In this document: piece after piece, positions 4,958 through 64,000 of the stretch
How positions within the stretch are numbered: the stretch's first letter is position 1
How the letters are laid out: each line of letters opens with the position of its first letter
NCBI GenBank assembly: GCA_964019055.1
Contig: OZ025212.1
Location: 13,068,891-13,132,890, forward strand
Length of the DNA: 64,000 bases
Source: Anthopleura xanthogrammica
Lineage: Eukaryota; Cnidaria; Anthozoa; Actiniaria; Actiniidae
Direction of reading: 5' to 3'
The notes under the pieces: model-generated
Databases searched by the model: none
What the model saw: only the letters and a program-made list of their open reading frames with translations
What the model was told of the DNA's origin: nothing
Made by a program: the position numbers and the translations under genes

Positions 4958-14508
<9,551 letters not shown>

Positions 14509-34755: not shown

Positions 34756-35074
34756 CCTAGTTTACTTTAAATCCAAGAAAAGAAGTCTACAAAGATTTAA
34801 TTGACGGTAATTATTGGATTATGACGTACTCGCGATAAGATTTCGACTATTGATTATCAACTTGTAAACAAACCGCCCTTAAAGTGTGATATACCTAGAG
34901 GAAGTGAAACTTGCTCCACACCCGCGGCGATTCAACAGGTAACAGCAAGCAAAGTTTAAAATATTTACCTAAAACAGCAACAAACAAAAGCCAACCAAAA
35001 ACCACCAGTAATCGAATCAGGTCGTTCCACTATTTGATGTAAGTTCGAATTGCTGCGCGTGCGTACTTAGTGAC

Positions 35075-35217: not shown

Positions 35218-35280
35218 TGAGAACAGTTCCAGAAAAATACTCAGAATTTCAGTAAAAAAATTAATTGTACAGTTAAAAAA

Positions 35281-38200
35281 ATGGACGAGAGAAAATCTGG
35301 CGAAAAAGAGTTTCATGAAGGACAGGCTGATTCCTCCCAGAACGATTACCAACGTCGAAAACAAGCTGCGAAAAAAACAATGCTGATAGTGAACGATTTT
35401 AATCCCAACGAAGATACAACTTGTGGTGAACGTGTAGCTTCTTTTCTCGTATCTGCGGATTTTACAAATAAAGAAGACGATTCTAAACACCACAACAAAG
35501 AAGCCTTCCATCCAAGCAGGCCGATTATGTGGACGAGAGGGAAGTATAAATCTCGCGATGGAAAATCTCAGAGTTCTCAAAACAAGGCATTTTATTCAGA
35601 TATGGTGGTAAGGAGATCTAGAAATGATCTTACGACAGCTAAAAACGATGGGGGTTTTGTCCATAGAACCAAAAATCAGCGTTCAACTTTGCAACAATCA
35701 AGCGAAGCAAATAACACGGATCCAAGCAGTAGAGAGGAATACGGCGTGGAGAGGAAAAAAACAATTTCTCATCAAAGATGTTTTGAGACTTTTGATGCTT
35801 CAACGAGCAAGGATGAAAAATACAGTGCAAATTTTGCATGCTCAGATAGAGTGGCTATTCCAAGGATGAAAAGTGAACGAGAAGATATTTCATCCGTGGA
35901 AAAGAAGCGAACGAACGATTTTAAAGCCACAAGCCCTGAGGACTGGAAATGCAGCCAAGACGAGAATCCAGAAAAAGGTCATTTTAAAGCAACAACTGCT
36001 TCGAGAAAGGAAAGATTTAATGTTGCTGAATCTAAGAAGAAAAATATTTCAGGTTCTAAAGCAGTCGAAAAGGAATTTAAAGATTCTGAAAGAAGCCTCC
36101 AAGCTAATGAAGAAAATCGCAAATCAGCGAAGGTCAGAGGAACTGCTAAAGAACCAGTCGGGAAGAAAGTTGCTAAAACTTCTTCAAATATGGACAAAGA
36201 TGAGCTCAAGAGTAAATCCGAGAACCATGTAAGTGCTGCGTTCACGGGACATCTACCTGGAAGAATTCCTGGAACATACTCACTCATTGATATCGAAAAA
36301 CTCAAGCAAAAGCATTCAAGATGCTGTCGAGAGTGTCTGGAGGCCCGTGCGAGAAGTGCAAGGCCTGTCAGGAACGTCAACAAGCAAGAAGACACTAAGA
36401 AGTTAGCATGTCAAAAACCAACTGTTCCAGTGGTTGTCGATGGTTCTTCTGAGGAACAGTTAGAAAGTAGCATTGTGTTTTTTCGCAATGCTCTAAATGC
36501 AGTTGACCTGCTTGAAAGACTTTTCCAAAACATCGGCGGCACGAAGGAATTTTTGCAGAATGTTTACGATGGGTTGGAAGAATCCAGCGATGTTGCTAGA
36601 TGCAGGAGGAATATAGCTGATGCACGTCGACGAGATGAAGGTGCAGCACAGCAAAAAAATGTCCCCAAAAATGAGAGCAAAGAAAAAGTAACTAGCGAAA
36701 ATCACGAAGATGAAAGCAAGAAGGCATTGGGCAAGCGAAAAAAAAAAGACCACAGTAAAATAAAATTCAAGAGCAGTGGTGCAACTGGACAGTCAAGTGA
36801 TACAACAAGGTACATATTGGCCTCATTTGAGGTTTATAGCCCGTATTTGTTATGATGCTGATAGAGGTTTGGGCATAATGTTTTCTCATTTCAGACCATG
36901 TTTCATTCTTAGAGTAGTATCATTAATTTGTTTGCACATGAGAAGACACATGAATATGGATACAACTCAAACAAAGGATCTTATTCTCAAGAGTATGAAT
37001 GACACGTGGTCTGAAATGCAAAAAATTACGCCCAAGCTAAAGAGTTCTATAGACCCCTTGCACGTGACGTCAAAGCAGCTCAATTTGGAGGACAAAACAA
37101 AATTAAAGCATTTCAATCTCCTGAGAATTGGAATGTATTGTTTTGTCCTCCAAATTGAGCTGCATTCCGACGTGCTGCAAGGGGTCTATATTGCTCAGTC
37201 TTTTAAAATAAAATATTGAATGACAGTGAAAATTCATCTTCTTGCACGGTCACGGTACAGAGTGGATGAGATCCTTCGAACTATTCATTAAAGGCAAATT
37301 TTCTGCTTCATCAAACAAAATGCTTTGACCAGGCGTGGTCAAGGTCAAGGTCATGGCATTGCTTGATTTCACCGTACATTTCTACCCTTCGAGCAGAGGT
37401 TATTTATCCCCTCCGCAGGGGAAGAAAAAGACCTCTGCAAGCAGGTTTTATGTTTCTAATGGTAATACAAATTCTCTAAGCTAACGTTTATGGACAAGTT
37501 AGTTAATGCCATTGAAGTCATTAGTTTTAAGATTGATCCCCATTCACAGACTTGTTTCAACCCAATTTCATAGCATTAAGCCTTAGCTTTAAATATCTTA
37601 AGGTCCGTTTACGTTAGCAATTTTCTCGCGCGACTTGAGCGGTGATTTTATCGCAATCTCGATCGCGAGTGTAACACGCGGTGATTTTATTGCAAACTGG
37701 CTGCGATATTCCCTAAAAAAATCGCCGTTAAAATCGCCACACAAGTCGCGCGACAAAATTGCTTATGCAAACGGGCCTTTATAATGTAGGACTGCATTCT
37801 GTAAAAGGGAAGAGCACTTGAGGATATTAGATTTTATCAGTATTAATTTTTTCTTCTGGACCTTCTTTTTCAAAAAAGCCTGAAACAAGACCAGAAATCA
37901 AAGACTAAGCGGGACCGCGATAAAAACCTCCTGGAACTCAGCGACGAATGGAAGAAAAGGTATAGTTATCTATTGATATTTGATTCTGTATTCCAGATTT
38001 CGAACATCTCACAGGCGTGGGGCACGACACGTTCACGATACGGGATTGACGCCATACTTAGGGCCAGTCGCATTACTCAGGATGAGCCAATAAAAATGCT
38101 CAGGCACGCCCCATTACGGCACGTTGCGCTGTCTCGGTAAGGAATTTACGACATTCTTTGAACCAATCACAGGGCGCGATATCACTGATCAGACAATGAA

Positions 38201-45783: not shown

Positions 45784-45970
45784 GGTGGCGTAGTGGTACT
45801 GAACTCGCCTCTTACCTCTGGGGTCTCGGGTTCGATTCCCGGACTTGTTATCGCATGTGGGCAGAGTTTGTCAGGGCTCCCCCTTGATGCAAGGATTTCT
45901 CTGGGTTCTCTGGATTTCCTTCCTTCACTGTTCAGTCGCAAAACCTAACACGCTAAATTCCAATTCGATC
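45784..45970 (+). repeat. tRNA-derived SINE copy 5 with intact boxes
   Basis: Head GGGTGGCGTAGTGGTACTGA (A-box-like) and GGGTTCGATTCCCGG (a perfect B-box match GGTTCGATTCC). The tail CTAAATTCCAATTCGATCTG passes directly into the 57 bp tandem array. Confidence 0.85.
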
Positions 45971-46425
45971 TGTGAATTAGCCGGGCCCAGACTTTGATCA
46001 GCCCAGAGGTTGTTTCAGGGCTCAATCTGTGAGTTAGTCATACCCTGACTTAGATCAGCCCAGAGGTTGTTTCAGGGTTCAATCTGTGAGTTAGTCATGC
46101 CCTGACTTAGATCAACCCAGAGGTTGTTTCAGGGTTCAATCTGTGAGTTAGCCATGCTCTGACTTAGATCAGCCCAAAGGTTGTTTCGGATTTCGATCTG
46201 TGAGTTAGCCCTGCCCTGACTTAGATCAGCCCAGAGGTTGTTTCAGGGTTCGATCTGTGAGTTAGCCATGCCCTGACTTAGATCAGCCCAGAGGTTGTTT
46301 CAGGGTTCAATCTGTGAGTTAGCCATGCCCTGACTTAGATCAGCCCAGAGGTTGTTTCAGGGTTCAATCTGTGAGTTAGCCATGCCCTGACTTAGATCAG
46401 CCCAGAGGTTGTTTCAGGGATCGAT
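45962..46425. repeat. 57 bp SINE-tail tandem repeat, about 8 copies
   Basis: Units are exactly 57 bases apart (GTTAGC at 46261 and 46318). Each holds AATCTGTGAGTTAGCCATG, CCCTGACTTAGATCAGCCC and AGAGGTTGTTTCAGGGTT. The first unit is continuous with the SINE at 45784, so the array grew from the SINE 3' end. Confidence 0.93.
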
Positions 46426-47343: not shown

Positions 47344-47428
47344 ATGCATCCTAAAATCTCTCGAACTCTCTTCGCAATAGTCCTAGCATTTTCATATCTT
47401 GCAAGAGTGGCTACTCAAGGCTGGCATG
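47344..47428 (+). CDS. PKD1-like exon 1: signal peptide
   Basis: ATG at 47344 begins MHPKISRTL followed by the hydrophobic [16 protein letters not shown], a standard secretion signal with likely cleavage near VATQG. GTGAGT donor in phase 1, matching the discoidin exon 2.4 kb downstream. An upstream untranslated exon is possible. Confidence 0.85.
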
Positions 47429-50400
47429 GTGAGTTGTAACATTCTCTTAGTAGTTCACTAGTTGAATTCCATTGTCTCTTTAACAGTTGAATTCAGTTAA
47501 TTTTCGATTAAATAATTGAGTTGATAGGTAATCTTCGATTTTTGGCATTGATTTTGACGCCGGGTTCTTTAAGCCCTTTTTATAACCATAAAAATCGCTC
47601 TAAAACTAGTCAAGTTGGAATTAGAAAACTTTGGAAGCGACGAAAAGAAGTGAAGAAGAGTTCAAAATTTTATCTATTTCACAAATATAAGCTCGATGTA
47701 TTATCTAAGTTAAGAAGTCTCAAAGAAGTATAACTCATAAAATATCATATTATTTCTGAAGAAAACTGTAAAAGGAAAATAAGAAAGAAATATCAAATTT
47801 CCAAGTTTTGATTTAAGATGAATTTGAAGCAAAAATGACAGACATTTCTTGTCAACTTTCTTTGGAGCAAGTGAAACGAAATCATAAATTGTTTATAAAG
47901 TACATAAAATAAGACAATGGCTGAAGGGAATGGTACTTTGTTATTTTGAAGTGTTCTGCCCTGATCCTGAAATAGTTCTTTCGGCGAATTCACGTTTCTT
48001 AAAGTATTTATTGTTGCAAAAATGCGTTTATCATTAGCCATACTTATCGTATGTTGTAAAACGAAAAAGAGGAGTATTCTGAGGCAAAAGAAATTTGGGA
48101 ATTTGGGACTTTCTTCATTAAAAAAACGTTTTTTATCTTATAATCCGATTACGTTGTTTAAGATTTGACGTGCTGGTTGTTCGTTTGAGAAAGAAGGTAT
48201 TTTCATCCCTCACTACTGATGGAATACTTTTTTACGTCCTCTTATTTTATGTTATTTTGATACAAAGGAATACTGGTGTATGAATGCTACAGCAAGGGTG
48301 GCTATGGAAGAGTCATTCTGTGTAGCAAACAAGTAGAAGGCGTTTACTGTTCCTTTAGTTCTGTTTAAAAAATAGATATTGGCGAAATGGGAAAGGAAAA
48401 AAATTAAGTGAAGTAGTGAAAAAAGAAGGAAAGGAAAGGAAAGGCGAGGAAAGGAGAGTGAACTGAAAGAAAAAATGAAGGGGAGCGAAGGAAAAAAGAA
48501 ATAAAATAGAGAAACAAAAACGAAAAAGAAAGTGCTTTTATGACCATTTTTAATCAAACATAAAACTAAAATTAATTAATACCGAATCGTTCATAATTTC
48601 GACTGAGTAACAGGATACAAGAGCAAAGAGAACTACAATAAATCAGCCTCATGTCATGAACAGTGTAAACTCATTCCTTACCAACTATTTTTTCATTTCC
48701 TTTATATTTTGTTGTATTTATCTTTGGCCTTAACTGCCTTCAAATAGTAAACAATTCTACTTTTTGTTCAGAGTCCGAACATTCTGCCGGATCTTGGAAC
48801 AGTTGCTATGGATACCTTCGTATATATCCAAATAAAAGTTCTGGTTCTTTCTGTGTCCTTGAACATTTCAGTCTGGTATTCTGAAGGTGTTTGATTTAAA
48901 TATTGTAAAGTCTGGTGAGGATTTGGATATTCGAAATTTTTAGTTGCTTAAGATTTTAGAGGAGAAATGAAAGTTCGTTCGTTCGTTCGTTCGTTCGTTC
49001 GTTCGTTCGTTCGTTCGTTCGTTCGTTCGTTCGTTCGTTCGTTCGTTCGTTCGTTCGTTCGTTCGTTCGTTCGTTCGTTCGTTCGTTCGTTCGTTCGTTC
49101 GTTCGTTCGTTCGTTCGTTCGTTCGTTCGTTCGTTCGTTCGTTCGTTCGTTCGTTCGTTCGTTCGTTCGTTCGTTCGTTCGTTCGTTCGTTCGTTCGTTC
49201 GTTCGTTCGTTCGTTCGTTCGTTCGTTCGTTCGTTCGTTCGTTCGTTCGTTCGTTCGTTCGTTCGTTCGTTCGTTCGTTCGTTCGTTCGTTCGTTCGTTC
49301 GTTCGTTCGTTCGTTCGTTCGTTCGTTCGTTCGTTCGTTCGTTCGTTCGTTCGTTCGTTCGTTCGTTCGTTCGTTCGTTCGTTCGTTCGTTCGTTCGTTC
49401 GTTCGTTCGTTCGTTCGTTCGTTCGTTCGTTCGTTCGTTCGTTCGTTCGTTCGTTCGTTCGTTCGTTCGTTCGTTCGTTCGTTCGTTCGTTCGTTCGTTC
49501 GTTCGTTCGTTCGTTCGTTCGTTCGTTCGTTCGTTCGTTCGTTCGTTCGTTCGTTCGTTCGTTCGTTAATTTCCTACTTTAATTTTTTGCTTTTTTGTTC
49601 ACTAATATGTCTCATTTTTCATTCATTTATCAATCAATATATCATTCCCATTCCACCCATCCATCCATCCATCCATCCATCCATCCATCCATCCATCCAT
49701 CCATCCACCCATCCATCCATCCATCCATCCATCCATCCATCCATCCATCCATCCATCCATCCATTCATTCATTCAGTCCTTTATTCGTCTATTATCATTT
49801 ATCTATTAATCAGCTGCTGAGGCAATATCCATTTATCATTGTATATATCTATTATTATCCAGATTGTCGCAAGCCACTTGGTATGGCCAGTGGGGACATC
49901 CAAGACAATCAAATCATCGCAGCTTCGGTATATAACAAAGAGACGACCTACGGTCCATCATTTGCCAGACTTGGTTTCCCTGGTGGCGGGTACAGGGCGG
50001 ATCCTAAAGCTAATCAGGCTTGGATCATGGTCAATTTTAACAAGCCCACCATTATTACTGGCATAGCGACCCAAGGGTTTGGTAATGTGAGCATCCAAGA
50101 ATGGGTCAAGAAGTTTTATCTTGGGTATACAGTTGGAGGGGGAAATTCATTCTTTAAAGATGTTAAAGGAGGAAAACAAGCGAAGGTCAGTGGAATGCGG
50201 CTTTGTTTTTACACGTTTCTTTGGTTACTAGAGAATAAAATTCCATGACAGCACTAGACGGTTTTAGCATCAGGACGCGAAAATGCTGCAAATGGCGTCC
50301 TGTTGACAATTAACATACAACTGATTTTCACATCGTTCACATGACTGTACTGATGATCTCTGCTTTTGTTGTGTAGTCACGTGATTGTTCATAAATTACC

Positions 50401-53400
50401 TTTATATATTTGTATATTTCTTTCTTCAGCAATTTGATGCCAATGTAGACAGCAACAGCATTGTTCATAACAACATGCCGGTACCCGAGTCTGTCAGTAC
50501 GATCAACATCATGCCCATCACATGGAATCAGAACTTTGCTATTCGCTTTGAGCTGTATGGCTGCTTAGCAGGTAAGCTAGGATAGTCACCTTTAGCAATA
50601 GGCCCCTTCACAGTTCCCTGTGCCATCTTGAAAGGTAGCCGTGCCTTGGCATCGAAGCGAGAAATGAGGTGACCTTGCAATGATAGAGAATAATTTTCCA
50701 TAGTGTTTAAAAAGGTCTCTATCATTGCAAAATTTATAAACAATTGCAATAATTGAGAACAATAGGCTGATGTGAATTTTGTCATTAAAAGTCATCGAAT
50801 AGATACCTAGCCTCTAGACGTTTCATACCTAAACTACCACAATCCTTTTCAAAAAATATTTTCATATTCAAATGTTTGAACTCCTTTGAGAATACCAAGA
50901 CAATAGTGAACATTAACACAACAAAAAAAGCTACCGAAAGGGATTCTGGAAGTGTAGGTATAAAACGTCATCATGCTTTAGGCCTATTCAGAACATACGA
51001 AAACGATTGACTTTGAGTGATTGCAACTGATTTCCAAACTTTGAATAGCGTATAAAGATACGACTGTGTTTTTAAGATTTCCGTGGTATTGAAGTACTGA
51101 CTTGCATGACATTAATTTTGTATGATTTGATGAGTTTATTGTTTGTTTTTTTCTAGATGGGTACGAGTGTTTAAGCACTCCATGCCAGAACAACGGTACA
51201 TGTGTGGACATGGTTGCCAGTTATCACTGTAACTGTACGACAGGATTCAATGGCACTAACTGCCAATATAGTGAGTAGAGATGATATAGTTTGTAGATGT
51301 GGAGCATGAATATAGTGTATCAATGTATCCTTCCATCCCGTCCAATCTCTTCCCGCCCACACTTCCTTTCCCATCCAATCCTTTCATCTATCTGTCCATC
51401 GGTCCGTCCAACCGGTTCATCGATCCATCTCATTCTTCCATCCCATCCCATCCATCCATCTATCAATCTCATCCATCAGGGAAGTAGCGACGTAGAGAGG
51501 ACCTAGGATCAAGGGGTTACCGCTGCCAAAAATTGCAAATCGCCGAAACCAAAAAATGAAAGATAAAGGAAACGCGATAATTGCAGACGCAAATAACATA
51601 AAGTGAGCAAAATCGCCGCAACAATAGCATGTGGGAATAACACTTTCCCTAAAAAGCCATCACTCAACTCTATCCTACTTGTTTGCCAGATATTGACGAC
51701 TGCGCCAACTCTCCCTGCAACGGCGGAAACTGCACCGACCTTGTCAACAACTTCTCTTGTGACTGCCTTCCTGGTTACACCGGCAAAACCTGTAACATAG
51801 GTAACTATGGAAACCACATGCTTATACACCCTAAAAGTGTCAGACAAAATAACTGCTGTTCACGTTCAAGTATAGACCCCTTTCACGTGACGTCAAAGCA
51901 GTTCATTTTGGAGGACAAACAAAAGAATTGCAATCTCCTGAGAATTGGAACCTATTGTTTTGTCCTCCAAATTGAGCTGCATTCCGACGTGCTGCAAGGG
52001 GTCTGTAAGCATCAGCAACATACACAGACTCAGTGCAGCTCTTCTCTAAAAAGGCAATAATGCACAACTTTCTCTGGGTGTTTCTGATGGTACTCGGCCT
52101 GAAAACTGAAATGAAAACCACAAAGCTGTGCCATTTTATCGATTGTTCTGCTAAAGCCAGTCTGTATGTAATTGTCGTTTCGATCTCTATTTTGAAGACA
52201 TCGACGAGTGTGTTATTTCACCCTGTCAACATGGTGGATCATGTAAAGATGTTGTCAATGGATACGAATGTACGTGTATTGGAGGCTACGGAGGAAAAAA
52301 ATGCGAGGAAGGTAAGTTATCTTGTGCATTTTCTTAGCATTCTATATACTTAAAAACAAGGGGCCCTCACAACTGGGTACTATAATGTTTCGCCATTTCA
52401 CGTGTGCAGTTAATTCCTCGATCGTAGTGTTGCGACATTTCAAGGAACGGATACTTTAAACATCGTAAATGGCTTTGCACCATCACGTGATAGCAGCCAT
52501 GACAGGAGGCAGGAACAATTGAATCTGGTCTAATCTGATTTACATGAGAAAGAATTCAGTTTCCCAGGGGAAAAAGACTATTGTTGTGCCTCCTATTATG
52601 GCTGCCATCACGAGATGGTGTAAAGACTCTATACATTTTCATGTCCATGAAAAGTCTAACCGATCGAGAAATTAAAGGAAGGATAATGCCCAATGACACA
52701 TGATCTGCTTGAAGCTATCTAGTGTTGTCCTCCATTATATGTGATGGAAATAGAGGAGTCACGTAGCATGTTGCATGTTGCATGTTGTTTAATGAAATTA
52801 CAATACTAATCCGCGTCTCTCTTTTTTAGAAACCGGGTTTTTCTTAATTGTTTGGCTCCAAGTAAAAGCCAAGCAGTTCACCATGGATTTCATGAACAGA
52901 AGTTCTGCTGCATTCAAAACAAACGCCTTCCAGGTTAATCAAGAAATCGCCTCGATGTTAACTCAAGACCAAGGATTCCTGTCCTCTGACGTAATACGCT
53001 TCAGGTAAATAAAGACTATGCAAAACTAACCTTTTTATTTTTGCAATTTTGTGTTGAAAAAGCAGCTGTTCTCGTGATAATATATCTTGTGTTTTGTTTT
53101 AGTCCGGACAGCTTTCTTGTGGTAGAGGTTTTGATTGAGTGTCTTAAGAACAGTACTGGTAGTATCATGGACAACATGGAAAGGAAGATTTTTAATGGAG
53201 CAAGAATATTTAAGAATGATTACATCAAATTTGGAGACACAGGTATGAACGCCTTAGCTAGATACATAATAAGGACCGGGAGGGGGGGGGGGGGGGGTGG
53301 GGGGTTAGCGCCTCATATTTTTAGCCAGAAATTATTTTCTGCTCAAGATGCCTAACATAAGTTCATAACAATAAATATGTTGCAATTGCCTCTCAGAAAT

Positions 53401-56400
53401 TTCATTTCTGAGAGCCTCAATTTCAAAATTTTCAAGGTGAGTACATTCCCATAGGACTCCTCAGAATAGCCCCCCCCCCCCCCCAGCCATGCCACTTAAA
53501 ACTATGCTCCGCGGTCCCTACACATTAGTGTTAGGGTCTGTCTTAACTACTCACATATCTACTGACCTATTTAACTGCCTTCTTACCTACTTGCCTGCCT
53601 GCCAACCTCCGTTTCCCCTACTGACATACTTGCCTGGTTCCCTAAAGACAACACGCACCCACCCATTCTACCAACCTACCAACCTACCAACCTACCAACC
53701 TACCAACCTACCTATCCACCTACCGACCGACCAAACTATCTACACCTACCTGTCCTATATTGATTTAAATTTCAAGTAGCCACTTAAGGATTTTTTTCCG
53801 TCAACAGTAAATCTATATTGTAAGCCACCCAAGGTCACGCTACCATTCCTGAAGACACTATCACAGGCCACTCATATCAGCCGACACATGACCTTCACTG
53901 TCTCCATGCCAACCGAATTAGCATGCCAAGCAGCTAATTACATTGCGTCGTACAATAGTGCTATATACTCTATAAACAATATAACTGGCTCTCTTCAAAA
54001 TGTATACCAAACTTTTGGCAACTTAGCTCAGGATGAAACGACTTGGAAAATTCCCGCCAAAACGTTGGCTTATGGGAAATATTACGTGAAAGTGACTTCA
54101 GTCATCGAAAATAAACGAGGTACATGGAGTAGTGACTTTGGATTTATTGTTGTGGGGGCGATTCCGCTGGAATCGAGGATTGCAGGCTCAAGCTTAGTGT
54201 ACCAAGGAATCAAGGAAATTGTCTATCTTAATGGTTCTGGTTCCTGTGATCCTGACGTAGGACCGGGAAACTATGATGGGATGGAGTTTATATGGCTATG
54301 TAGAAGAGACAATGAAAGTTTTATGGGTGACCCTACGTCACTTCCTGTTGTGACACCGTCGTCTAATCAGAGTGCAGATCTTGGAGGATGTTATGGAACT
54401 GGAGTGGGGAGACTGGAATCAAGTCCAATGGAAAAGTATTCTTTGGGACTGGATATTGATAGAATGAATGGAAACGCAAAGTATGTTATAGCACTGCTGG
54501 TGAAGAAAGGAGAACGAAGCAAGTGGTCAGAGCACTCCATCTTTGTTAAAGAGGAAATTGATATTTCACTCAAGTGAGTACATTTTGAAAGAAAAGAAAG
54601 AAGAAAGACAAAGAGAGAAGGGAAAAAGAAAGTGAAATAGAAAGGAAGAAAAGAGGGGAGGGAGGGAGAAAGGGATTAAGGAAGAAAGGATCAAAGGAAG
54701 GAAAGAAGAAATGAAGAATAGGTAAAGGAAGGATGGAAGGAAGGAAGGAAAGATATATAGATAAAGAATGAAAGAAAGGATAGAAGGATGATGGGGAAAA
54801 AGGAGAGACAATTGCAAAAGTAGACATTTTACCTAACTTTTTAAATTAAATAATTAAACATTAGATAGACTTTTATTTTATTTTCTGAACCATTTTCAGA
54901 TGCATTCAGAACTGTCGTCAAAGTGTCATTCCCTCTGGAAGGCTCATCATCGAGACAACCTGCGAGGGTCTTCTTTGCAACAAGATAAACAACTACGCAT
55001 GGTACCTACAGTACCTGGACTCCAACACACAAAAATGGTTACTCGTACCAAATTTTGCCGACTACATCCTTACTTACATGAACTCCCCAAATCTTGTCAC
55101 TAAAGAAAGTCTTCTCAGAGGAAATACAACATATCTTCTTCGCCTCACAGCAGAGGCCCCCGGAGGCATCGTAGATACGACAAGTTATCGATTTGTTACG
55201 AATCACCCTCCGACTGGAGGTACTTGTGACGTTGACTTGCAAGAAGGAGAGGCGTGGTTGACATTTTTCAGTTTTGCCTGCAGCGGCTGGCAAGATGTAG
55301 ATTTACCGCTGACCTATAAGTTTCGATATAACACGAGTGATGGAATCGAAATGGTGTTTTTCTCTGGAAAATCCAGCTCAGCTCGAGCCAGGCTGCCTGT
55401 TGGAGACAAGATGAATGACATGATGCTTCACATCCAGATTCTTGTGCTGGATTATCTTGGTTCTGCTGCCAGCTTCTGGCTGCATGTCAAGGTAAGGAAC
55501 ACAATGGTGGAGGGAGGAAGGGTGATGTGGGAACGTGGTAATGATACTGTAAATGCAAAGTCATGTTACGGCAACCATGCTGGAGGTCAGGAAAGGGTCT
55601 GGAGGGGTGGGGATGGTGAAATAAATATTTGCATACACCGTGGCTTCTGACATGGCAAGTAGACCAATTTACGTTTTTGGTGAAGATTGAAGTTCTAAAT
55701 ATTCGTTTTTCGAATTGATAGCATAAGATTGCTAAGCCCCTTGAATATTCCACGTGAATATTCCACATACAATCGTTGCTAAACTAAGACAGAGATTTCG
55801 CAACAGACAATTCGAAACTGAAATATCATGCTAATGTTATCTAAATTGTAAAAAAAGCTCTGAACCCAGGTGAATGGATATTTATCGAAGAAACAATATT
55901 TGTATTATGATCATCCGGGTGGATGTAGTCCTGAGTAGGACTGTTTGATGTGACTGACGTTTCGACAACCTGAGCGGAAGTCATCTTCAGAGTCAAGTGA
56001 AGGATAAAGTCTAAATCATAGAGTACCACTCTTTATTGAATCCTACTAATCTACAATCTAGAATATATGATGATAGTTTTAATTTATGTCTTGTATATTA
56101 GGTCACTGACCCTGCAATTTCAAGCGCTTCCATCGAGGAAGCCGTCGGTAAACAGGGCGAGATGAATCAGTATCTTCAAGACAACAACATTGAATTGGCT
56201 GCCCAGCATGCCACATCTGTCCTGTCAGTTGTAAATAATGCTTCTCCACAAGAAATATCACTACTTAAGAAAATAGAGGTAGGTTCTGTTTTGTGTGGGC
56301 CCCAGCTTGAGCTCCGCTCCAATAGTCCCTTTCACAGTTCCCTGCGCCATCTTGAAAGGTAGCCAGTCCTTTGCATCGAACCGAGACGAACGGTGAGCTT

Positions 56401-59400
56401 GCAATGATAGAGGCCTTTCTTTACGCCTTGGACAATTATGCACATGTCTCTATCATTGCAAGCTCACCGTTCGTCTCACTTCGATGCAAAGGCACGGCTA
56501 CCTTTCAAGATGGCGCAGGGAACTGTGAAGGGGACTATTCCTGCAATTGTTCCGCATACCTTTAACCTCAGTCTGATATCTCATTTCATAGATAAAAGAT
56601 TTAATCGTGAAGGCCTGGTCAAATGTTACTGTTACTAATCTAGAGGAGATAGGACAAGTATCGGCTGTTATTACTGGAGTCTCGGACAAAAACAATGAAG
56701 TGTCATTTGAATCCCAGGTAAAGAACTACCCCTATCTCTAATTACTCCAAAACCTAACTCTCCCTCTCCTCCGCCTCCCTGTCAGGGTACCAGATGCACT
56801 GGGCTTGCCGAGTAAGATTGGTTGAATGCAATATTGCTGGTAAATTTTTTTAAACAATATGTATAATTTTCTTCGCTGCTTAAATTTCGCAAGTAGCAAC
56901 TTCATGACTTCCATGTCATTATCATTTTATTCTGACTTGGCAAATTGTTTATCCACTATTCCATGACATATATAGAGGTTTTCCACTGCAGCCATGTTTA
57001 AGGGCAGGAACAATGCAATTTTTTTTACATGACAAGAGAATTTATTTCCCAAAGGAGGAAATTTCTATTGTTTTGCCCTCTAACATGGTTGCCGTGAAAA
57101 ACCTCTATTTTTAGTGATCCTCAATTATTTTCCGACAGAAAACAATACTCACCCTCCTTGGAAACATGACAACCATTTTGGAATCCGAAGTCTCCAACAA
57201 ATCCAAAAATGATGTGAACGAGCAGTCGATTCAAGGTGTTGGTTCGAGTCTACTGCACGGTGTTGGGAACTTCATCGAAATAGCGGCCATAAATGCGTCT
57301 CTGACAGAAAAGGAAACTGGAAAAACTAGACAACTTAGAAATACAGAAAGTGAATATGGCAACAAAGAGGTCAGTGATCCTGATTGTAGAAGTGATATTG
57401 GTTTGCGGGACTGACAAATAACTACTACTACTACCGTAGTCACTCGAATAAGCGCCTCCCTCGAATAAGCGCCACATTTGGGACAAAAAGTTAATAAGCG
57501 CCTCCCCCGAATAAGTGCCGCGGTCCCGAAAGAAAGTTATGTTAGTCACTGCAAATTTTTCGCACATAGAACTATACCATTCAATTAAAAAAAACATGTT
57601 TCTTTGTCGCGTCCAAGTGTTAAATAAACCCCGGCTCAAATAAGCGCCGACCTCAAATATGCGCCGCACTTGAGGCGCGAAAAATTTAATAAGCACCGCG
57701 GCGCTTATTCGAGTAAATACGGTATTTGGGATGATGTTTTCTGTAGCGGTAATGCACTAGCCTATCATCCCTGGGGCTTCTGGTTTGATTCCTGGACCGT
57801 CTTGCATGGCATCACATGCGAGTAGAGTTTGTTAGGGGTTGATTCAATGGGTTTTTTATTCAGATTCTCCAGTTTACCTTCCTCCTCAAAACCCAGCACG
57901 CTAAATTCAGATTTCAGAAGGTATTTCAGGTTTTTTATAAAATGTGACTTATTACAACATATATGTATGCGAGATAAGCAAACTAAGGTAAAATACACGC
58001 CAATTTTATTCCCTTTTTTTCTTTCCAATAATTCCTCTAATATCCCGGGAATTTCTACACAATTGTCCAAAATATCACTTGAAAGACACTCAACCAACAC
58101 TCAAATGTTTTTGGCACTTTCCCATTTTTTGTATTCACAGAGCATATCAATGGTACAAAAAGCTGCCGAGCTGATCGATCAGGTTGGGAGCAGCTTGATA
58201 CAAACAAAAGAACTTTACGAAAAACCTAGTGTCTTTACGACAAAGTCAATATCAATGGTCATCGATAGGCAGAAACCAGACCTCATTGGTGGAAAAACAC
58301 TCGAAGAAAAAGGCATGATGATATCACTTCCAGGAGCAGAGGAATTACTGAGGGGGGAGGACGCGGGAAAAGAGGACCACCTTAGTACTCAGGTAAGGTA
58401 TTTGGGGGTTCATTTGACGTCATGATCCACATAATTACTAGATTAGTCCAGTCTCTTTCCTTCACCGACTTCGGACAGAAAGTGAATCCGCGACTGGACT
58501 ATTACTAGATCAGAAATGCAGGACGGATTACCAGAACTGGGATATTTGGGTTGAGAATCGGCAAGCATCCCGATTGAGGAAATTCCATACATCGGTCCAT
58601 TGGTCAAACACAAAGCATTCAGTCGAGGTTTTAAGGTTCAAATTTGAAAAATATTTTTATAATACCCTGCAGCCTCGATTTAATTCTCTGTGTGTACCAG
58701 CTAAAGTGACCTTCAGAACGAACTCAAGGTCAACCAAGCAGAATTAAGGATTCGACATTGCTTGGAAAATGCTAATCAAATATAGTTGACCCAAAATTCC
58801 TTTCGGGGAATGCGATCAACACAGCTGGTAACCAGTAGTGGACTGATGTATGGAAAATGAGGAATGGCTTTTTCAAATGATTACTGCAATTTTCATAAAT
58901 ATGCGAACTCTGTAATTGCGAGTTGCTCGCTGGAATTTGGTTTTTCACTGCCGCCAATCATAAATATAAAAGGTACTGACTGATTAGTTTTGATTGATGG
59001 AAGCGATAAACCAAATTTCAGCGTGCAGCTCGCAGCTACCGAGTTCGCATGTTTATGAAAATAGCAGTAATAGAGTGGTTTCATGCATATTCTGCAGGCC
59101 AAAGCAATCAAAGTTTTCCTCTTTGGAAAGTAAAATATCTTGTCATGTAACAAACATCACATTTTTCTTGCACTGAAACATGGCGGTCGTGATGAAACTA
59201 CTGTATTAAGAATGAACTCATTTTTTTCTTTACTAGATGGTATCGCTAGCATCTAATCCATTCACCTGGGACACCAGTGCACAACACGTCAGATCTTCAT
59301 TTCTCGACTTCAAGTTAAAGAACACCAATGGAACTCATATGGAAGTCAAAAACCTCAACAAGGACTTTGAATTATTTATACCAGTAAAGCATAGTGGCCA

Positions 59401-62400
59401 AGACCCTCCTGAGAACAAAGAGTCTTACTTTGTAAAACCAACTGTGAATGGAAGCATGCAGTATCACATCATTAACATACCTGGACACGAATATGCGGTG
59501 TCGATCAAGATAAAACCTTTGTCAGCGGTAAACTTGACATTGTACATGCGCTATGGCTCGAGACCAACATTTTATGAATACAACTACACAGCGGTCATAC
59601 CTAACTTTGAGTCGTGTAACTCAACTAAACTTGGAGGCTTTCGCAATTGCACCTCTGATCCTTTTACTGTAACCATATCAAGCGCCTTAACTGGCCATGT
59701 TGGACTTCATTACATCGGTATTTTCTACAAAAGGCCATTGGTGACGTCAGAGAACAAAACAGAAGTACGCATGCGTATGAGGAGGGATTGTTTTTCAAGT
59801 GGTGGTCGTCAAAAGAGATCGTTATGTGTTGGTGTTAAGGACCCTCCTCCAACTGAATCCACAATTGACGACCTTGTACCAAAATATGACCCAAAAACTG
59901 ATGTGAATTACACAATGTCTGTTACTATAGCAACATGTTTATTTTGGAACACGACCCAGCAGAAATGGACATCATATGGATGTAGAGTAAGTACTTGGGT
60001 ATATTTGAATTTTTTTTTTTTTGAGTAGTTGATATATTTTTGGATGCATGTTATTACTCGTGTATATATTGTATTGCATCGAACTGCTTTTTTTAGACTC
60101 TACCGCCTCCAATTTCTTACAAAACATTTCTTGACTGTTCTAATGCTATGGCGACTACTATGGTCACGTAGTGCTCACTGATCATTGTCTTATCACCACG
60201 GCAACCAACTAATCACAACACTAGTCTAGTCTTGACACTTTCATTTCAACATCATTTCTTTCAACACTATATTTTTTCTACTTTACTTTTTTCTAAGGTT
60301 GGACCGAGATCAAGAGTAGGACTTCTTCATTGCCGTTGTAACCACTTATCATCGTTTGGCGGGAATTTCTTCGTGGCTCCAAATCCAATCGACTTCAACA
60401 AAGTCCAGCAGCGATTCATTGACTTTGACCCCGAGAACTTTGTTGTGTTCTTTGTGGTATTTGGTATTTTTGGGCTGTACCTTGTGGCTCTTGTAATAGC
60501 AAGGCGAGCTGACAGAAAAGATAAGGCCAAGGTAATAAATCAATATGAGTAATTATTATGAACTAGTTTTAAATCACTGAAGTAGAATTTATCTCACTAA
60601 GAAGCACGGCACAGAAGTTACCGTGACCGTGCGTTGTCAAGGGATAACAGACGTCAGATCGCGAATTCTATATATAGTACATTAGTCAACAAGAGAAATT
60701 TTTGTTAGTACCTCTTGTTTCCTCTCCTAACATGGCTGCCCTGTTTTTGTTTATCATGATTCAAGAAACCATGATGCAAAGTTTTATGCATCTTTTTTTA
60801 GGCAACGGAAACCCTTCGTCTGTTATCATCAAATGAACACCTCTTCGAGATATCAGTTTACACAGGTATGTGGCGAAATAATGGCACGACTGCTAACGTA
60901 GCAGCACTAGTCTACGGACAGAATGGACAAAGTGAAGTCCTTCCACTCAACGACAGATACAGCAAGAGAAAGCTTTTCGCCCGGGCAAGCGTCAATGTCT
61001 TCATAGTCTCGTTACCAGACTCTCTCGGTCCCATGGTAGCGATCAAGTTATGGCACGACAATGAAGGTACCAGTCCATCCTGGTACATCAACCAGATTGT
61101 CATCCGTGACTTAGATAATGACGAGAAAACATACTTTGTGTGTAATCGTTGGTTGGCTGTCGACAAGGAAGACGGTGAAGTTCAAGCTACTTTTGGCGTC
61201 TCTTCGAAGGAAGAACTTTCTAGCTTCAAATATCAATTTTACTCCCGAATTTCAAAAAATATGGGTGATGGACATCTTTGGTTATCAGTAGTCACCAGGC
61301 CTCCTCATAGCCCGTTTACGCGTGCGCAGAGAGTGTCTTGTTGTTTATCTGTCTTGTACTGTGCAATGGTTGCTAGTGCCATGTTCTATCAGTTTGGAGA
61401 GAAGAATAAAGACAGTATTAAATTTGGACCTTTGCGGTTAAGCGTCAAGCAGTTGATGATTGGCATCCAGAGCGCTTTAATCGTGGTTCCAATCAATCTT
61501 ATTCTTGTTACTATTTTTAGAAACGTCAAATTTTCTAATAATACCAATAAACCTCGACGAAATTCTTACTTGCCGGAAAAACACGAAAAGGACGGAAAAA
61601 CGAAACAGAAAACTCCAGGTTGTTTTCCGCACTTTTTCGTTTACATCGGGTGGTTTTTATGCATGGCGACTGTGATTGCTTCAGGAACTTTCACCATCTT
61701 GTACAGCCTCTCGTGGGGCGGGGAAACATCCAACCAATGGCTGACCTCGATTCTCATCGCGTATGTACAAGATATAGGTGTCATTCAACCCATCAAGGTG
61801 GTCTCTTTTGCGGTTATTCTCGCCCTTATAATAAAAAAACCTGTCGAGGAAAAGACTTCTCATTCGATCGAAAAAGCAGATTTAGAAGTCAATACTAAAG
61901 TGACTATTGTTCCACCTGAGGGAGAAAAACTGGAAGAAGCTCGCACATACAGAAAAAATATTGTGGAGTCTTTTAGAGCTGTTGGGGAGATTGTGTTCTA
62001 CCTGATGTTCGTGGTCTGTTTGATGGTGTTTGTGTATGGTAATCGTGGTTATGATCGGTACCGACTGACAAAGTCTATCGACGATATCTTTACCTCATCT
62101 TTCAAAAAGGTAAACCATAACATCAATATGTCACTCGGTTTTTATTATTATTTGAATTATTGTTTTACTCGGTGGAGTAAGTGTGGGCTGGGTGTGGTAA
62201 GCAAATAGAGAGAAAAGAAAATAGGAAATTATGGGAGTAGAAAAAAAAAGAGAAGGGAAAGGAAGTCAATGAGATGCAAAAAGCGAGAAGCAGGACGCAT
62301 ATAATTCTTCTCAAAACTATTCTAAAATTGAGGCTAACAGGAAAATACATGTAAAGAAAACACACTTTTCTCGAATTTGTGCCATTTCCTTTGGATTTTC

Positions 62401-64000
62401 CTACAGCTGGTCTGAAATAGTGACGTAGAAATTACGTCACTGTAAAACTGATGTACTATTAAGCCCCAGCGATTATTCAGACATGTCAAATTTATACAGA
62501 AAATATTCGGAACACAAAACCTCAACAATACCTAAACAAAATAGCGTAGAAGCATGCAGTGTTTTCTTATCTAATCGTAGTGATTAGCAATGGTGCATCT
62601 CAATCTTGCAAAATTTTCTCGATTCTGATTGGCTAACATTTTTTCTCAGATCAGCTGGCTGTTTGTCTCGCATCTAAGATAGTTTTGAAAGGAGACGAAA
62701 ATTGTATCAACCACTAAAATATGTATACTCATAGGCTTACAATCTCTTATTTGCATTTTATCAAAGATTTCAACCACTCAAACATTCTGGAATTGGACAA
62801 GAACGCATTTAGTACCAGGTTTGTATGATACCACGTGGTACAGGCCAGGAGGACCTAGGTTTCCTGAGGGGTACATATCGAGTAAGGAAGCATTCCTTGT
62901 TGGTATGCCTAGGTTCAGGCAACTGCGGGTTAAAACAGGTGAGCATTTTCTGGGTATTGAATACATCTTGCATACCTATGTTAAAATGTCAAAAAATGTT
63001 AATCTAAAATAGCAGCATTTTACAGCAGCAAGAACAGCAAAAAAACACCAAGAGAAACGTTAGCAACAATAACAGTAACCACAACAACAGAAACAATAGC
63101 AGCTGCAACAACGCATGTAAGCAAGAAAAAATAAAGACAACAACAAACTGAGCAGCAATAACAACAGTCACGTGACAAAAACAACAGCAATTCTTGGGTT
63201 GCAACACGTCACTCAAAATCCCTCGAGATATAGATAACAATGAAACAGCCGCCATCTTGGTTGATACAACAAGAGAATCTTAATGAAGAATGCTTTGTAT
63301 AGTCAACCAACATGGCGGCTATGACGTAATATGCAACCAATAATGACAAAAGTGGCAGCAGCAGCAAAAGTACAAATAAGCAACCAACAACACAAACGGT
63401 AACAACAGCAGCAGCAGCAGGAATAAAAACAGTGACAAAAACAATAACATTGAGCCACCTTAAAAAATCCAAAATGGTGGTTGTGTTGGAATGTTGAACT
63501 AATCTAATGATGATGCACAGAACTAATGTAGTGCTATATTCTTGCCTTTTATAGAGTCCCCTTGTGAAGTGGAGAACTCTTTTCCCTGGAGTGGGCTGCA
63601 TTTCAACCGTTGTATTCTGCCATACGAACCACAAAACGAATACAGAACTCTGTACAACTTTCCACGATGGATCCCGGTGAAAAACATTAGCACTTATGGA
63701 TCACTTTTTGATTTAAAAAGACTCTGCCCAAAACCATGGAGATACAAGTCCTCCAAGGAACTGAATACTTTTTCCATCCAAGGAGTAAATGGAGATTACG
63801 AGGGGGGTGGATATGTGGCAGATTTGGGGTACAATAGCGAAACAGCTTTGGGTGTCATCAATGATCTACAGTCAGACAACTGGGTAGATAGACTTACATC
63901 TCTTGTCATCTTGGAATTCACCGTGTTCGAGCCAACTAGTTCGCTTTTCAGCCATGCAAAGTTTATCTATGAAGTCGTTCCTTCGACTGGAAAACCACTC
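47344..64000 (+). CDS. Polycystin-1-like receptor-channel protein (3' end beyond window)
   Basis: Nineteen coding exons give at least 2086 residues: 47344-47428, 49863-50185, 50430-50571, 51157-51270, 51690-51800, 52198-52311, 52830-53004, 53103-53242, 53808-54573, 54900-55491, 56102-56278, 56592-56717, 57139-57369, 58141-58392, 59237-59986, 60298-60531, 60802-62109, 62767-62938, 63555-64000+. Polycystin-1 family proteins are large surface receptors that pair with TRPP channels; the best-known members act in cilia or on sperm. The order here is signal peptide, discoidin (F5/8C), EGF x3, SEA-like, REJ, GAIN/GPS, TM1, PLAT, TM2-TM6, polycystin (TOP) domain. The N-terminal discoidin plus EGF module is unlike human PKD1, which has LRR, WSC, lectin and PKD repeats. 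The last helices and the C terminus lie outside the window. Confidence 0.93.
48973..49567. repeat. (GTTC)n tetranucleotide microsatellite, about 149 units
   Basis: 595 bases of GTTC repeats in which I see no interruption, ending GTTAATTT. It is CpG-containing (one CpG per unit). The tetramer reads as a Val-Arg-Ser-Phe repeat over 200 codons from an ATG at 48967; this is an accident of the repeat. Confidence 0.97.
49655..49775. repeat. (CCAT)n microsatellite
   Basis: About 27 CCAT units with one CCAC variant, decaying into CATT repeats. It ends about 90 bases before the discoidin exon acceptor. Confidence 0.95.
49863..50571 (+). CDS. PKD1-like exons 2-3: discoidin (F5/8 type C) domain
   Basis: Residues about 29-183. 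[20 protein letters not shown] opens the domain and [10 protein letters not shown] closes it; these two cysteines form the usual end-joining disulfide. Typical core residues are [36 protein letters not shown] and YLGYTVGG, then [12 protein letters not shown] and INIMPITW. Such domains bind glycans, lipids or matrix ligands. The exon 3 junction is phase 0. Confidence 0.93.
50598..50735. mobile_element. AGTTCCCTG MITE, copy 3 (truncated)
   Basis: Starts ATAGGCCCCTTCACAGTTCC and carries CCATCTTGAAAGGTAGCCG and GTCTCTATCATTGCAA, but lacks the right end. It sits 26 bases after exon 3 of the PKD1-like gene. Confidence 0.75.
51157..52311 (+). CDS. PKD1-like exons 4-6: three EGF-like domains
   Basis: Each exon is one EGF domain with phase 1 at both ends: 51157-51270, 51690-51800, 52198-52311. 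All have six cysteines. EGF1 begins [19 protein letters not shown]2 [18 protein letters not shown]3 [16 protein letters not shown]. The second and third start with the D/N-I-D-D/E-C calcium-binding pattern. They probably form a stiff stalk. Symmetrical phases allow skipping or duplication without frameshift. Confidence 0.93.
51871..52006. mobile_element. CACGTGACGTCA MITE, copy 3
   Basis: Starts TATAGACCCCTTTCACGTGA and ends CGTGCTGCAAGGGGTCTGTA. Inner arms TTTTGGAGGACAAACAA and TTGTTTTGTCCTCCAAATTG are inverted. It lies in the intron between EGF2 and EGF3. Confidence 0.88.
52471..52628. mobile_element. ATGGCTGCC inverted-repeat element, copy 1
   Basis: Arms GCTTTGCACCATCACGTGAT with AGCAGCCATGACAGGAGGCA and TGCCTCCTATTATGGCTGCC with ATCACGAGATGGTGTAAAG are inverted. 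It resembles the element at 56972 in its inner part (GGCAGGAACAAT / ATTGTTGTGCC). Confidence 0.75.
52830..53242 (+). CDS. PKD1-like exons 7-8: SEA-like region
   Basis: Residues about 297-401, exons 52830-53004 and 53103-53242 joined in phase 2. The pattern [14 protein letters not shown], then [17 protein letters not shown], then [11 protein letters not shown] looks like an SEA domain (two strands, helix, strand). The autocleavage GSVVV motif is absent ([10 protein letters not shown] instead), so it should not self-cut. A different fold is possible. Confidence 0.5.
53275..53490. other. G-run/C-run bounded intronic segment
   Basis: A 17-base class G-run near 53282 and a C-run near 53470 bound about 190 bases containing the hairpin GCCTCTCAGAAATTTCATTT / CTGAGAGCC. 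It may be another G-rich MITE. Downstream (53670-53720) is a short CCAACCTA repeat. Confidence 0.4.
53808..55491 (+). CDS. PKD1-like exons 9-10: REJ region
   Basis: Residues about 402-854. Exon 9 contains [15 protein letters not shown] and MEFIWLCRR, the usual opening of a receptor-for-egg-jelly module. Exon 10 contains the strongly conserved REJ end: [20 protein letters not shown], then [19 protein letters not shown] and [14 protein letters not shown] domains are extracellular Ig-like folds found in sperm receptors and polycystins. The 766-base exon is the largest in the ectodomain. Confidence 0.9.
54580..54800. repeat. GAAAGA/GGAAGG purine-rich low-complexity DNA
   Basis: An imperfect A/G-only stretch in intron 9 directly after the donor. 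Serine/phenylalanine-rich open frames on the minus strand here are artefacts. Confidence 0.85.
56102..58392 (+). CDS. PKD1-like exons 11-14: REJ-to-GAIN linker
   Basis: Residues 855-1116, exons 56102-56278, 56592-56717, 57139-57369 and 58141-58392, all phase 0-0. The sequence is largely helical and polar ([60 protein letters not shown]), which is the usual form of the helical subdomain of GAIN folds. Several N-glycosylation sequons are present. Because all four exons are multiples of three, any could be skipped in frame. Confidence 0.88.
56322..56538. mobile_element. AGTTCCCTG MITE, copy 4
   Basis: Starts AATAGTCCCTTTCACAGTTC and ends AACTGTGAAGGGGACTATT, near-perfect inverted ends. Inner arms GCATCGAACCGAGACGAACG and CGTTCGTCTCACTTCGATGC. 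It lies between exons 11 and 12; the AATAG/CTATT ends suggest a TA-type target. Confidence 0.88.
56972..57108. mobile_element. ATGGCTGCC inverted-repeat element, copy 2
   Basis: Ends ATAGAGGTTTTCCACTGCAG and TTGCCGTGAAAAACCTCTAT are inverted; inner arms GGGCAGGAACAATGC and CTATTGTTTTGCCC. It ends 30 bases before PKD1-like exon 13. Confidence 0.82.
57432..57723. mobile_element. CGAATAAGCGCC element
   Basis: Ends TACCGTAGTCACTCGAATAA and TTATTCGAGTAAATACGGTA are terminal inverted repeats. Inside, AATAAGCGCC-like motifs recur at least six times in both orientations. No coding capacity. Confidence 0.88.
57745..57920 (+). repeat. tRNA-derived SINE copy 6 (diverged)
   Basis: CTGTAGCGGTAATGCACTAG (A-box-like), GGTTTGATTCCTGGACC (B-box-like), then ACATGCGAGTAGAGTTTGTT and CAGATTCTCCAGTTTACC, ending near AACCCAGCACGCTAAATTC. 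It follows the CGAATAAGCGCC element. Confidence 0.7.
58870..59080. mobile_element. Inverted-repeat element in PKD1-like intron 14
   Basis: Arms GATTACTGCAATTTTCATAA with ATGCGAACTCTG and CGAGTTCGCATGTTTATGAA with AATAGCAGTAAT are inverted, as are GAATTTGGTTTTTC and ATAAACCAAATTTC. About 80 per cent arm identity by eye. Confidence 0.65.
59237..59986 (+). CDS. PKD1-like exon 15: GAIN domain
   Basis: Residues 1117-1366, a single 750-base exon. It contains [38 protein letters not shown] and [20 protein letters not shown], the beta-rich part of a GAIN-like fold, and ends [16 protein letters not shown], the first half of the GPS. A basic site GGRQKRSL at about residue 1311 resembles a furin site (R-x-K-R). 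About ten N-glycosylation sequons fit an extracellular location. Confidence 0.88.
60298..60531 (+). CDS. PKD1-like exon 16: GPS cleavage site and TM1
   Basis: The exon completes the [23 protein letters not shown]. The expected self-cleavage HL|S lies between residues 1383 and 1384, with the following serine as nucleophile. TM1 follows: [20 protein letters not shown], then a basic cytoplasmic [11 protein letters not shown]. Cleavage in polycystin-1 keeps the two halves associated. Confidence 0.92.
60802..62109 (+). CDS. PKD1-like exon 17: PLAT domain and TM2-TM6
   Basis: A 436-codon exon, residues 1445-1880. The PLAT/LH2 domain ([20 protein letters not shown] to [17 protein letters not shown]) is the cytoplasmic lipid/protein-binding module placed after TM1 in all polycystin-1 proteins. 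Then come TM2 ([20 protein letters not shown]), TM3 ([20 protein letters not shown]), TM4 ([20 protein letters not shown]), TM5 ([16 protein letters not shown]) and TM6 ([20 protein letters not shown]). The end [17 protein letters not shown] leads to the TOP domain. Confidence 0.93.
62767..64000 (+). CDS. PKD1-like exons 18-19: start of the polycystin (TOP) domain, partial
   Basis: Exons 62767-62938 and 63555 to beyond 64000, joined in phase 1. [40 protein letters not shown] and [18 protein letters not shown] match the extracellular domain of polycystins between the first and second channel-region helices. The stretch ends [13 protein letters not shown]. The remaining channel-region helices and the C terminus are not in the window. 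Confidence 0.92.
63005..63450. repeat. CAA/CAG-rich low-complexity DNA
   Basis: Irregular AACAACAGCAGC-type DNA interrupted by an inverted pair AACAGCCGCCATCTTGGTTGA / TCAACCAACATGGCGGCT at about 63244-63321, likely a small MITE. It lies in intron 18. Leucine-rich minus-strand open frames here are artefacts. Confidence 0.85.

What the first reader, a model, noticed from the sequence alone, without database searches (positions are those of the whole stretch)
47344..64000. Polycystin-1-like protein with an N-terminal discoidin-EGF-SEA-like module
The exon series shows signal peptide, F5/8C, three EGF domains, an SEA-like region, REJ, GAIN/GPS, PLAT and the polycystin domain in one frame. Human PKD1 and PKD1L proteins use LRR, WSC, lectin and PKD repeats instead. 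A discoidin-EGF sensor joined to a TRPP-type channel half would be a distinct ligand-sensing design in this lineage.
Basis: partly seen in the sequence, partly recalled or inferred. Interest (0 to 1): 0.75.

Follow-up and report, generated by a model that had tools for sequence, protein, structure and literature searches.

The report
Hexacoral discoidin-EGF polycystin-1-like receptor gene
This stretch holds most of one gene for a large cell-surface receptor-channel of the polycystin-1 family whose outer tip is a discoidin-EGF-SEA module, a layout also found in four other anemones and stony corals but not reported for the human members.

Summary
Nineteen exons (47344-64000, +) with GT-AG borders join into one 2086-residue frame without a stop. 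Pfam finds F5/8C, three EGF, REJ, GPS, PLAT and the polycystin (TOP) domain; SEA passes its cut-off only when scanned alone. The frame is open at 64000, so the channel pore lies beyond the window.

The exons belong together: one Nematostella protein (P0001, 55% identical) matches 18 of 19 exons. Oculina, Stylophora and Montipora have the same layout.

It is not unique to this animal, but rare. Of 84 polycystin relatives, 16 have F5/8C in their Pfam list (14 hexacoral, 2 amphioxus) and 4 have F5/8C plus EGF, those 4 all hexacoral. With the window these form one clade (100/100), inside an 18-row clade in which 14 rows carry F5/8C and 4 are models lacking the front. The EGFs sit on three phase 1-1 exons between F5/8C and SEA, which fits exon shuffling.

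Best mechanism: a GAIN/GPS-cleaved adhesion receptor-channel subunit whose discoidin-EGF tip binds an external ligand. Identity is firm; ligand, cleavage and gating are inferred.

The parts
47344..47428 (+). exon 1: start codon and putative signal peptide ([26 protein letters not shown]...)
   Evidence: sequence and phase; no homology support, so another first exon is possible
49863..50571 (+). exons 2-3 (49863-50185, 50430-50571): F5/8 type C (discoidin) domain, Cys30 to Cys181
   Evidence: Pfam 47.0 bits, cut-off 28.2; coagulation factor VIII and neuropilin chains in PDB, E 1.5e-35 for a chain with two such domains, 3.2e-19 for a single domain
51157..51270 (+). exon 4: EGF 1, phase 1-1 exon
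   Evidence: Pfam; phases
51690..51800 (+). exon 5: EGF 2, phase 1-1 exon
   Evidence: Pfam; phases
52198..52311 (+). exon 6: EGF 3, phase 1-1 exon
   Evidence: Pfam; phases
52830..53242 (+). exons 7-8 (52830-53004, 53103-53242): SEA-like domain
   Evidence: Pfam SEA 29.1 bits alone, 23.1 in whole protein, cut-off 26.4; SEA matched, below cut-off, in 4 of 5 homologous pieces (in P0007 another family scored slightly better; P0005 none)
54002..56206 (+). REJ domain (exons 9, 10, start of 11)
   Evidence: Pfam E 1.2e-66, residues 467-889
56102..60360 (+). exons 11-16 up to the GPS motif: region expected to be GAIN (inferred); GPS at 59933-60360 with the HLS site at residues 1382-1384
   Evidence: Pfam GPS 30.9 bits; H1382 and L1383 invariant in 10 of 10 aligned proteins
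60430..60510 (+). TM1 after the GPS
   Evidence: hydropathy peak 2.97
60847..61179 (+). PLAT domain (exon 17)
   Evidence: Pfam E 4e-17
61330..62049 (+). TM2 to TM6 (exon 17)
   Evidence: five hydropathy clusters; PDB Polycystin-1 6a70_B, E 7.3e-52, best stretch residues 1384-1686
62101..63988 (+). polycystin (TOP) domain: end of exon 17, exons 18 and 19; frame open at 64000
   Evidence: Pfam E 8.2e-28, profile positions 2-185 of 199

Best explanation
It is the orthologue of a hexacoral polycystin-1-like gene (database label 'PKD1-like 2') with an F5/8C-EGF(3-5)-SEA front end. Shown here: exon model backed by homology, domains, clade membership, open frame. Inferred: the discoidin-EGF arm binds a matrix or cell-surface ligand; the GAIN/GPS cuts itself at HL|S; the two fragments stay joined until ligand or pull exposes the stalk after the cut; the stalk then changes the conductance or signalling of a channel that the C-terminal half forms, probably with PKD2-type subunits. 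The EGF exons were most likely inserted between F5/8C and SEA in a common ancestor of anemones and stony corals.
For: One frame, 18 GT-AG introns. Domains. Same order in P0001-P0004 over 92-100% of the query at 47-55% identity. Clade of 5 at 100/100. EGF-less paralogues P0005-P0008 run from the last F5/8C residues (ELYGC) straight into the SEA-like region, and the three EGF exons are all phase 1-1, as insertion predicts. EGF number is 3, 5, 4 and 3 in P0001-P0004 (counted on the alignment; Pfam gives 3 and 5 for P0001 and P0002). GPS HL[ST] kept. The pore half of P0001 aligns to polycystin-2 at E 1.7e-45, more weakly to PKD1L3 (4.2e-21) and PC1 (3.6e-9). In human PC1/PC2, removal of the PC1 N-terminus exposes the stalk and raises calcium permeability, and Wnt9B, which binds the N-terminal LRR, acts only if PC1 can be cleaved (PMC12513491, abstract).
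Against: No transcript, ligand, cleavage or current data. The pore is outside the window and the own genome could not be reached. The SEA call is borderline. Exon 1 is unsupported by homology. Insertion of EGF against a single early loss rests on a branch of only 87/77.
Confidence: 0.75

Rival explanations
1. Two neighbouring genes: a secreted discoidin-EGF protein (47344-52311) followed by a REJ-polycystin gene, wrongly joined.
For: Exon 1 lacks homology and intron 1 (2.4 kb) holds a 595-base (GTTC)n array and a 121-base (TCCA)n array, where assemblies can err. The homologous proteins are themselves predictions.
Against: Four annotated full-length proteins in four species hold both parts; phases fit across every join. 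In paralogues a discoidin domain without EGF is joined to the same kind of polycystin.
Confidence: 0.04
2. A surface or matrix adhesion protein: GPS cleavage sheds the discoidin-EGF-SEA-REJ half into the matrix and the channel half matters little. A different coral REJ protein (WSC-PKD-REJ-GPS-PLAT) was found in the skeletal proteome and was proposed to be shed this way (PMC4890752, passages).
For: F5/8C and EGF are adhesion modules (general knowledge); 28 of 32 N-glycosylation sequons lie before the GPS serine.
Against: The membrane, PLAT and TOP part is the best conserved: tblastn identity to P0001 is 58-69% for exons 16-19, against 36-58% for exons 2-15 apart from one 62.5% match at EGF 1; and P0001, P0002 and P0005 keep a PKD_channel.
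Confidence: 0.2
3. A gamete-recognition receptor like sea urchin REJ proteins, with F5/8C as the egg-coat binder.
For: REJ family relation; a 'polycystic kidney disease protein 1-like' transcript is among genes upregulated in Euphyllia ovaries (PMC7579821, passages, where it is listed for its likeness to a skeletal matrix protein; not shown to be this gene).
Against: No expression data for this gene. A Nematostella 'Pkd1l2' is listed as a candidate gene downstream of Gcm, and most such candidates are expressed mainly in neuronal clusters (PMC10491807, passage; which paralogue is not known).
Confidence: 0.1

Closest known systems
Nematostella vectensis 'polycystic kidney disease protein 1-like 2 isoform X1' (P0001) and homologues in Oculina, Stylophora, Montipora (P0002-P0004)
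   Same: whole domain order, F5/8C + EGF + REJ + GPS + PLAT + polycystin domain; same clade
   Different: EGF number varies (3-5 in them, 3 here); 47-55% identity
EGF-less hexacoral F5/8C polycystins (P0005-P0008, P0042, P0045, P0046)
   Same: F5/8C, REJ, GPS, PLAT, channel in their Pfam lists; SEA-like stretch aligned in P0005-P0008
   Different: no EGF between F5/8C and SEA
vertebrate PKD1L2 (sloth P0035)
   Same: REJ-GPS-PLAT-polycystin-channel body
   Different: C-type lectin (PF00059) and SUEL/galactose lectin (PF02140) instead of F5/8C-EGF-SEA (Pfam list)
Nematostella polycystin 1 of hair cells (PMC8846589, passages)
   Same: REJ, PLAT, TOP, 11 membrane spans
   Different: WSC and PKD domains in front; reporter expressed in hair cells
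coral skeletal REJ protein of Acropora digitifera (PMC4890752, passages)
   Same: REJ, GPS, PLAT
   Different: WSC and PKD repeats; no F5/8C or EGF in the passages read
sea urchin SpREJ1 (PMC1934368, passages)
   Same: REJ family protein with one EGF domain
   Different: C-type lectin domains; lacks the large membrane part

Membership tests
Polycystin-1 (PKD1) family | REJ domain | tested here: met
   Pfam 225.6 bits, cut-off 25
Polycystin-1 (PKD1) family | GPS with cleavage tripeptide | tested here: met
   GPS 30.9 bits, cut-off 22.5; HLS at 1382-1384, HL invariant in 10 of 10; cleavage itself not tested
Polycystin-1 (PKD1) family | PLAT after TM1 | tested here: met
Polycystin-1 (PKD1) family | polycystin (TOP) domain | tested here: met
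   97.7 bits, cut-off 23.6
Polycystin-1 (PKD1) family | 11 membrane spans with PKD_channel at the C end | tested here: inconclusive
   6 span clusters seen, window ends at 64000; PKD_channel present in P0001, P0002 and P0005; own genome could not be reached
PKD1L2 subfamily as known from vertebrates | C-type lectin and SUEL lectin front | tested here: not met
   no such Pfam match up to E 1; F5/8C, EGF, SEA instead
PKD1L2 subfamily as known from vertebrates | groups with vertebrate PKD1L2 rather than with other polycystins | tested here: inconclusive
   vertebrate and amphioxus PKD1L2 rows form a clade (100/97) apart from the 28 rows that hold the window (83/86; all cnidarian but for P0009, whose source names no organism); four bilaterian rows (P0041, P0063, P0111, P0114), most with long branches, fall near the cnidarian rows with support of 83-86; vertebrate PKD1L1, PKD1L3 and PKDREJ were not in the trees
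hexacoral F5/8C-EGF polycystin group | F5/8C + EGF front and membership of the clade | tested here: met
   clade of 5 of 5, 100/100, in 100% of 200 bootstrap trees
cleaving SEA domain | G-S-[VI]-[VI]-V type cleavage motif (recalled) | tested here: not met
   here [11 protein letters not shown], against MSPGSVIVELD in P0008

The most novel reading that the evidence does not exclude
Hexacorals built their own branch of polycystin receptor-channels by placing a discoidin domain in front and, in one branch, slotting a variable run of EGF exons behind it. This would make them discoidin-gated calcium channels, neuropilin-like or DDR-like sensors fused to a TRPP pore. In the rows seen here the F5/8C-EGF form is absent from vertebrates, octocorals and Hydra; amphioxus has F5/8C with PLAT in two proteins of other make-up (P0111, P0112).
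Probability: 0.35. Interest if true: 0.65.

Novelty: new variant of a known kind. Interest (0 to 1): 0.4.

Why it matters
Polycystin-1 proteins are large sensing receptor-channels whose natural ligands are mostly unknown. A lineage that carries a compact discoidin-EGF tip, with EGF-less paralogues for comparison, gives a natural domain-swap test of whether the front sets the ligand while the GAIN-channel body stays the same. It also shows that the database label 'PKD1L2' hides a distinct hexacoral group.

Tried and rejected
Two-gene reading: rejected, because homologues carry both halves and phases fit. A second polycystin copy elsewhere in the window: none found (of 103 tblastn pieces from 11 relatives at E 1e-4, 0 lay wholly before 47000). 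Membrane-binding discoidin like factor VIII C2: disfavoured by eye only (in the alignments the residues at the recalled membrane-spike positions, MF and LL in C2, are polar or mixed here); this is not a test. Self-cleaving SEA: motif not kept here. Third protein search with a profile was swamped by EGF proteins (1493 matches, 120 listed; 4 of the 120 list PKD_channel), so it adds nothing on breadth. Structure prediction was not used: the spliced protein is not given letter for letter by the window DNA, and the same-layout homologues exceed the length limit. Papers: searches (20 of 214, 20 of 319, 15 of 238, 5 of 5, 3 of 3 and 10 of 13 papers listed) showed no title or abstract start that describes an F5/8C-EGF polycystin; subscription papers on Nematostella and Hydra polycystins (recalled) were not seen.
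Full report
WHAT IS THERE. The region reads as one gene on the + strand. Nineteen exons between 47344 and 64000 join into 2086 residues with no stop; all 18 introns begin GT and end AG, and every junction keeps the frame. I chose the borders by eye, so the fit is partly by construction; homology is the independent check. Pfam finds, in order, F5_F8_type_C (residues 54-178), three EGF (about 188-296), SEA (306-374, below cut-off in the whole protein, above it when scanned alone), REJ (467-889), GPS (1349-1387), PLAT (1460-1570) and the polycystin domain (1878-2082). Hydropathy gives six span clusters: TM1 after the GPS and five after PLAT, up to residue 1860. The frame is open at the window's end, near the end of the polycystin domain; the pore part is beyond the window. 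The window's own genome could not be reached.

IS IT ONE GENE. The full-length search (41 rows) returned Nematostella P0001 (55% identity, 100% of the query covered), Oculina P0002 (49%, 92%), Stylophora P0003 (47%, 99%) and Montipora P0004 (48%, 99%), each a single annotated protein with F5/8C, EGF, REJ, GPS, PLAT and channel domains in its Pfam list. By tblastn P0001 hits 18 of 19 exons; P0002-P0004 hit 16 of 19 each, missing exons 1, 8 and 13. Exon 1 is hit by none of the eight relatives tried. These are predicted proteins; I saw no transcript.

HOW COMMON IS IT. A search with the GPS-to-pore part of P0001 gave 84 relatives. F5/8C (PF00754) is in the Pfam list of 16 of 84: 14 from hexacorals and 2 from amphioxus. 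F5/8C with EGF is in 4 of 84, all hexacoral (P0001-P0004). None of 3 octocoral (Dendronephthya) and none of 2 Hydra rows lists F5/8C. The search finds only relatives that share short exact words and have similar length, so absence is weak evidence; and a Pfam list can miss a domain: Acropora P0044 lists no F5/8C but BLAST shows one (36% identity to the window's, E 4e-22).

FAMILY TREE. Rows were chosen by hand: 48 of the 84, 2 of the 41, and the window; one (P0112) was dropped as too short, leaving 50. The 36 rows left out are mainly bdelloid rotifers and further echinoderm and amphioxus rows. A second, careful tree kept 35 of the 50, without long or distant rows. In both, the window and P0001-P0004 form one clade (SH-aLRT 100; 100/100), window nearest Nematostella. 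They lie in an 18-row clade (99; 100/100), hexacoral apart from P0009, whose source names no organism. Of its 18 rows, 14 have an F5/8C domain (13 by Pfam, P0044 by BLAST); the other four (P0009, P0043, P0047, P0048) are models that lack the front, P0009 starting before REJ and the others later, which I take as truncation. So F5/8C looks ancestral to this clade, and EGF a later addition before anemones and stony corals split, or an early feature lost once; the branch that would decide is only 87/77. Against a single origin of F5/8C in polycystins: three further F5/8C rows fall outside the 18 (P0056 next to it at 80/73; P0058 among WSC/PKD-type proteins; amphioxus P0111), and the EGF-less F5/8C label needs six changes on the careful tree (P0044 counted as lacking it). 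In one search vertebrate and amphioxus PKD1L2 stand apart from the cnidarian rows, but with 83/86; four bilaterian rows, most with long branches, fall near the cnidarians. So the label PKD1L2 is a best-match name, and orthology is undecided.

HOW THE FRONT AROSE. The three EGF domains are each one exon, each phase 1-1, and the EGF-less paralogues P0005-P0008 pass directly from the end of F5/8C to the SEA-like stretch. EGF number is 3, 5, 4 and 3 in P0001-P0004 (counted; Pfam agrees for P0001 and P0002). This is the pattern expected of exon shuffling and tandem exon gain.

HOW IT MAY WORK. The F5/8C domain is complete between Cys30 and Cys181 and is nearest in the PDB to factor VIII C1/C2 and neuropilin. 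The GPS keeps its cysteines, tryptophans and HLS. The SEA-like stretch lacks the recalled cleavage motif. The pore half of P0001 aligns to polycystin-2 (E 1.7e-45) better than to PKD1L3 (4.2e-21) or PC1 (3.6e-9), and the last span of P0001 has no Arg, Lys or His from IIGPV to AILN (read). Human PC1 has pore-blocking Arg and His residues (PMC12183636, abstract), but I did not align those positions: the PC1 match ends before this span. I favour a cleaved receptor-channel subunit: ligand or pull on the discoidin-EGF arm, exposure of the stalk, change in the channel, as reported for human PC1/PC2 with an N-terminal ligand (PMC12513491, abstract). All of this is inference for the present protein.

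NOVELTY. Member of the PKD1 family with a variant front end. The architecture is already in public protein sets under automatic names. I found no paper describing it in searches (capped lists); I read passages of six papers (in one search only reference-list entries) and abstracts of two. EGF in this family has a precedent in sea urchin SpREJ1. The Nematostella polycystin 1 of hair cells (PMC8846589) and the coral skeletal REJ protein (PMC4890752) have WSC and PKD domains instead.

Noticed in passing
48973-49567 and 49652-49772: Intron 1 carries a perfect 595-base (GTTC)n array and a 121-base (TCCA)n array; assembly or splicing here deserves care.
   Followed up: partly
45964-46419: Eight 57-base tandem copies about 0.9 kb upstream of the start codon.
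   Followed up: no
4961-6037 (-) and 13879-14511 (-): Two frames that look like parts of a voltage-gated potassium channel (Ion_trans 136 bits; BTB_2 95 bits), upstream on the other strand. Only 4 of the 113 upstream frames of 70 aa or more were given to Pfam.
   Followed up: partly
33982-34761 (-) and 35221-36852 (+): A 260-aa frame with a sub-threshold F-box match and a 544-aa open frame with no Pfam match.
   Followed up: no
   Followed up: partly
P0008: This EGF-less Nematostella paralogue has a canonical-looking SEA cleavage motif (PGSVIV; motif recalled) that the window protein and P0001 lack.
   Followed up: no
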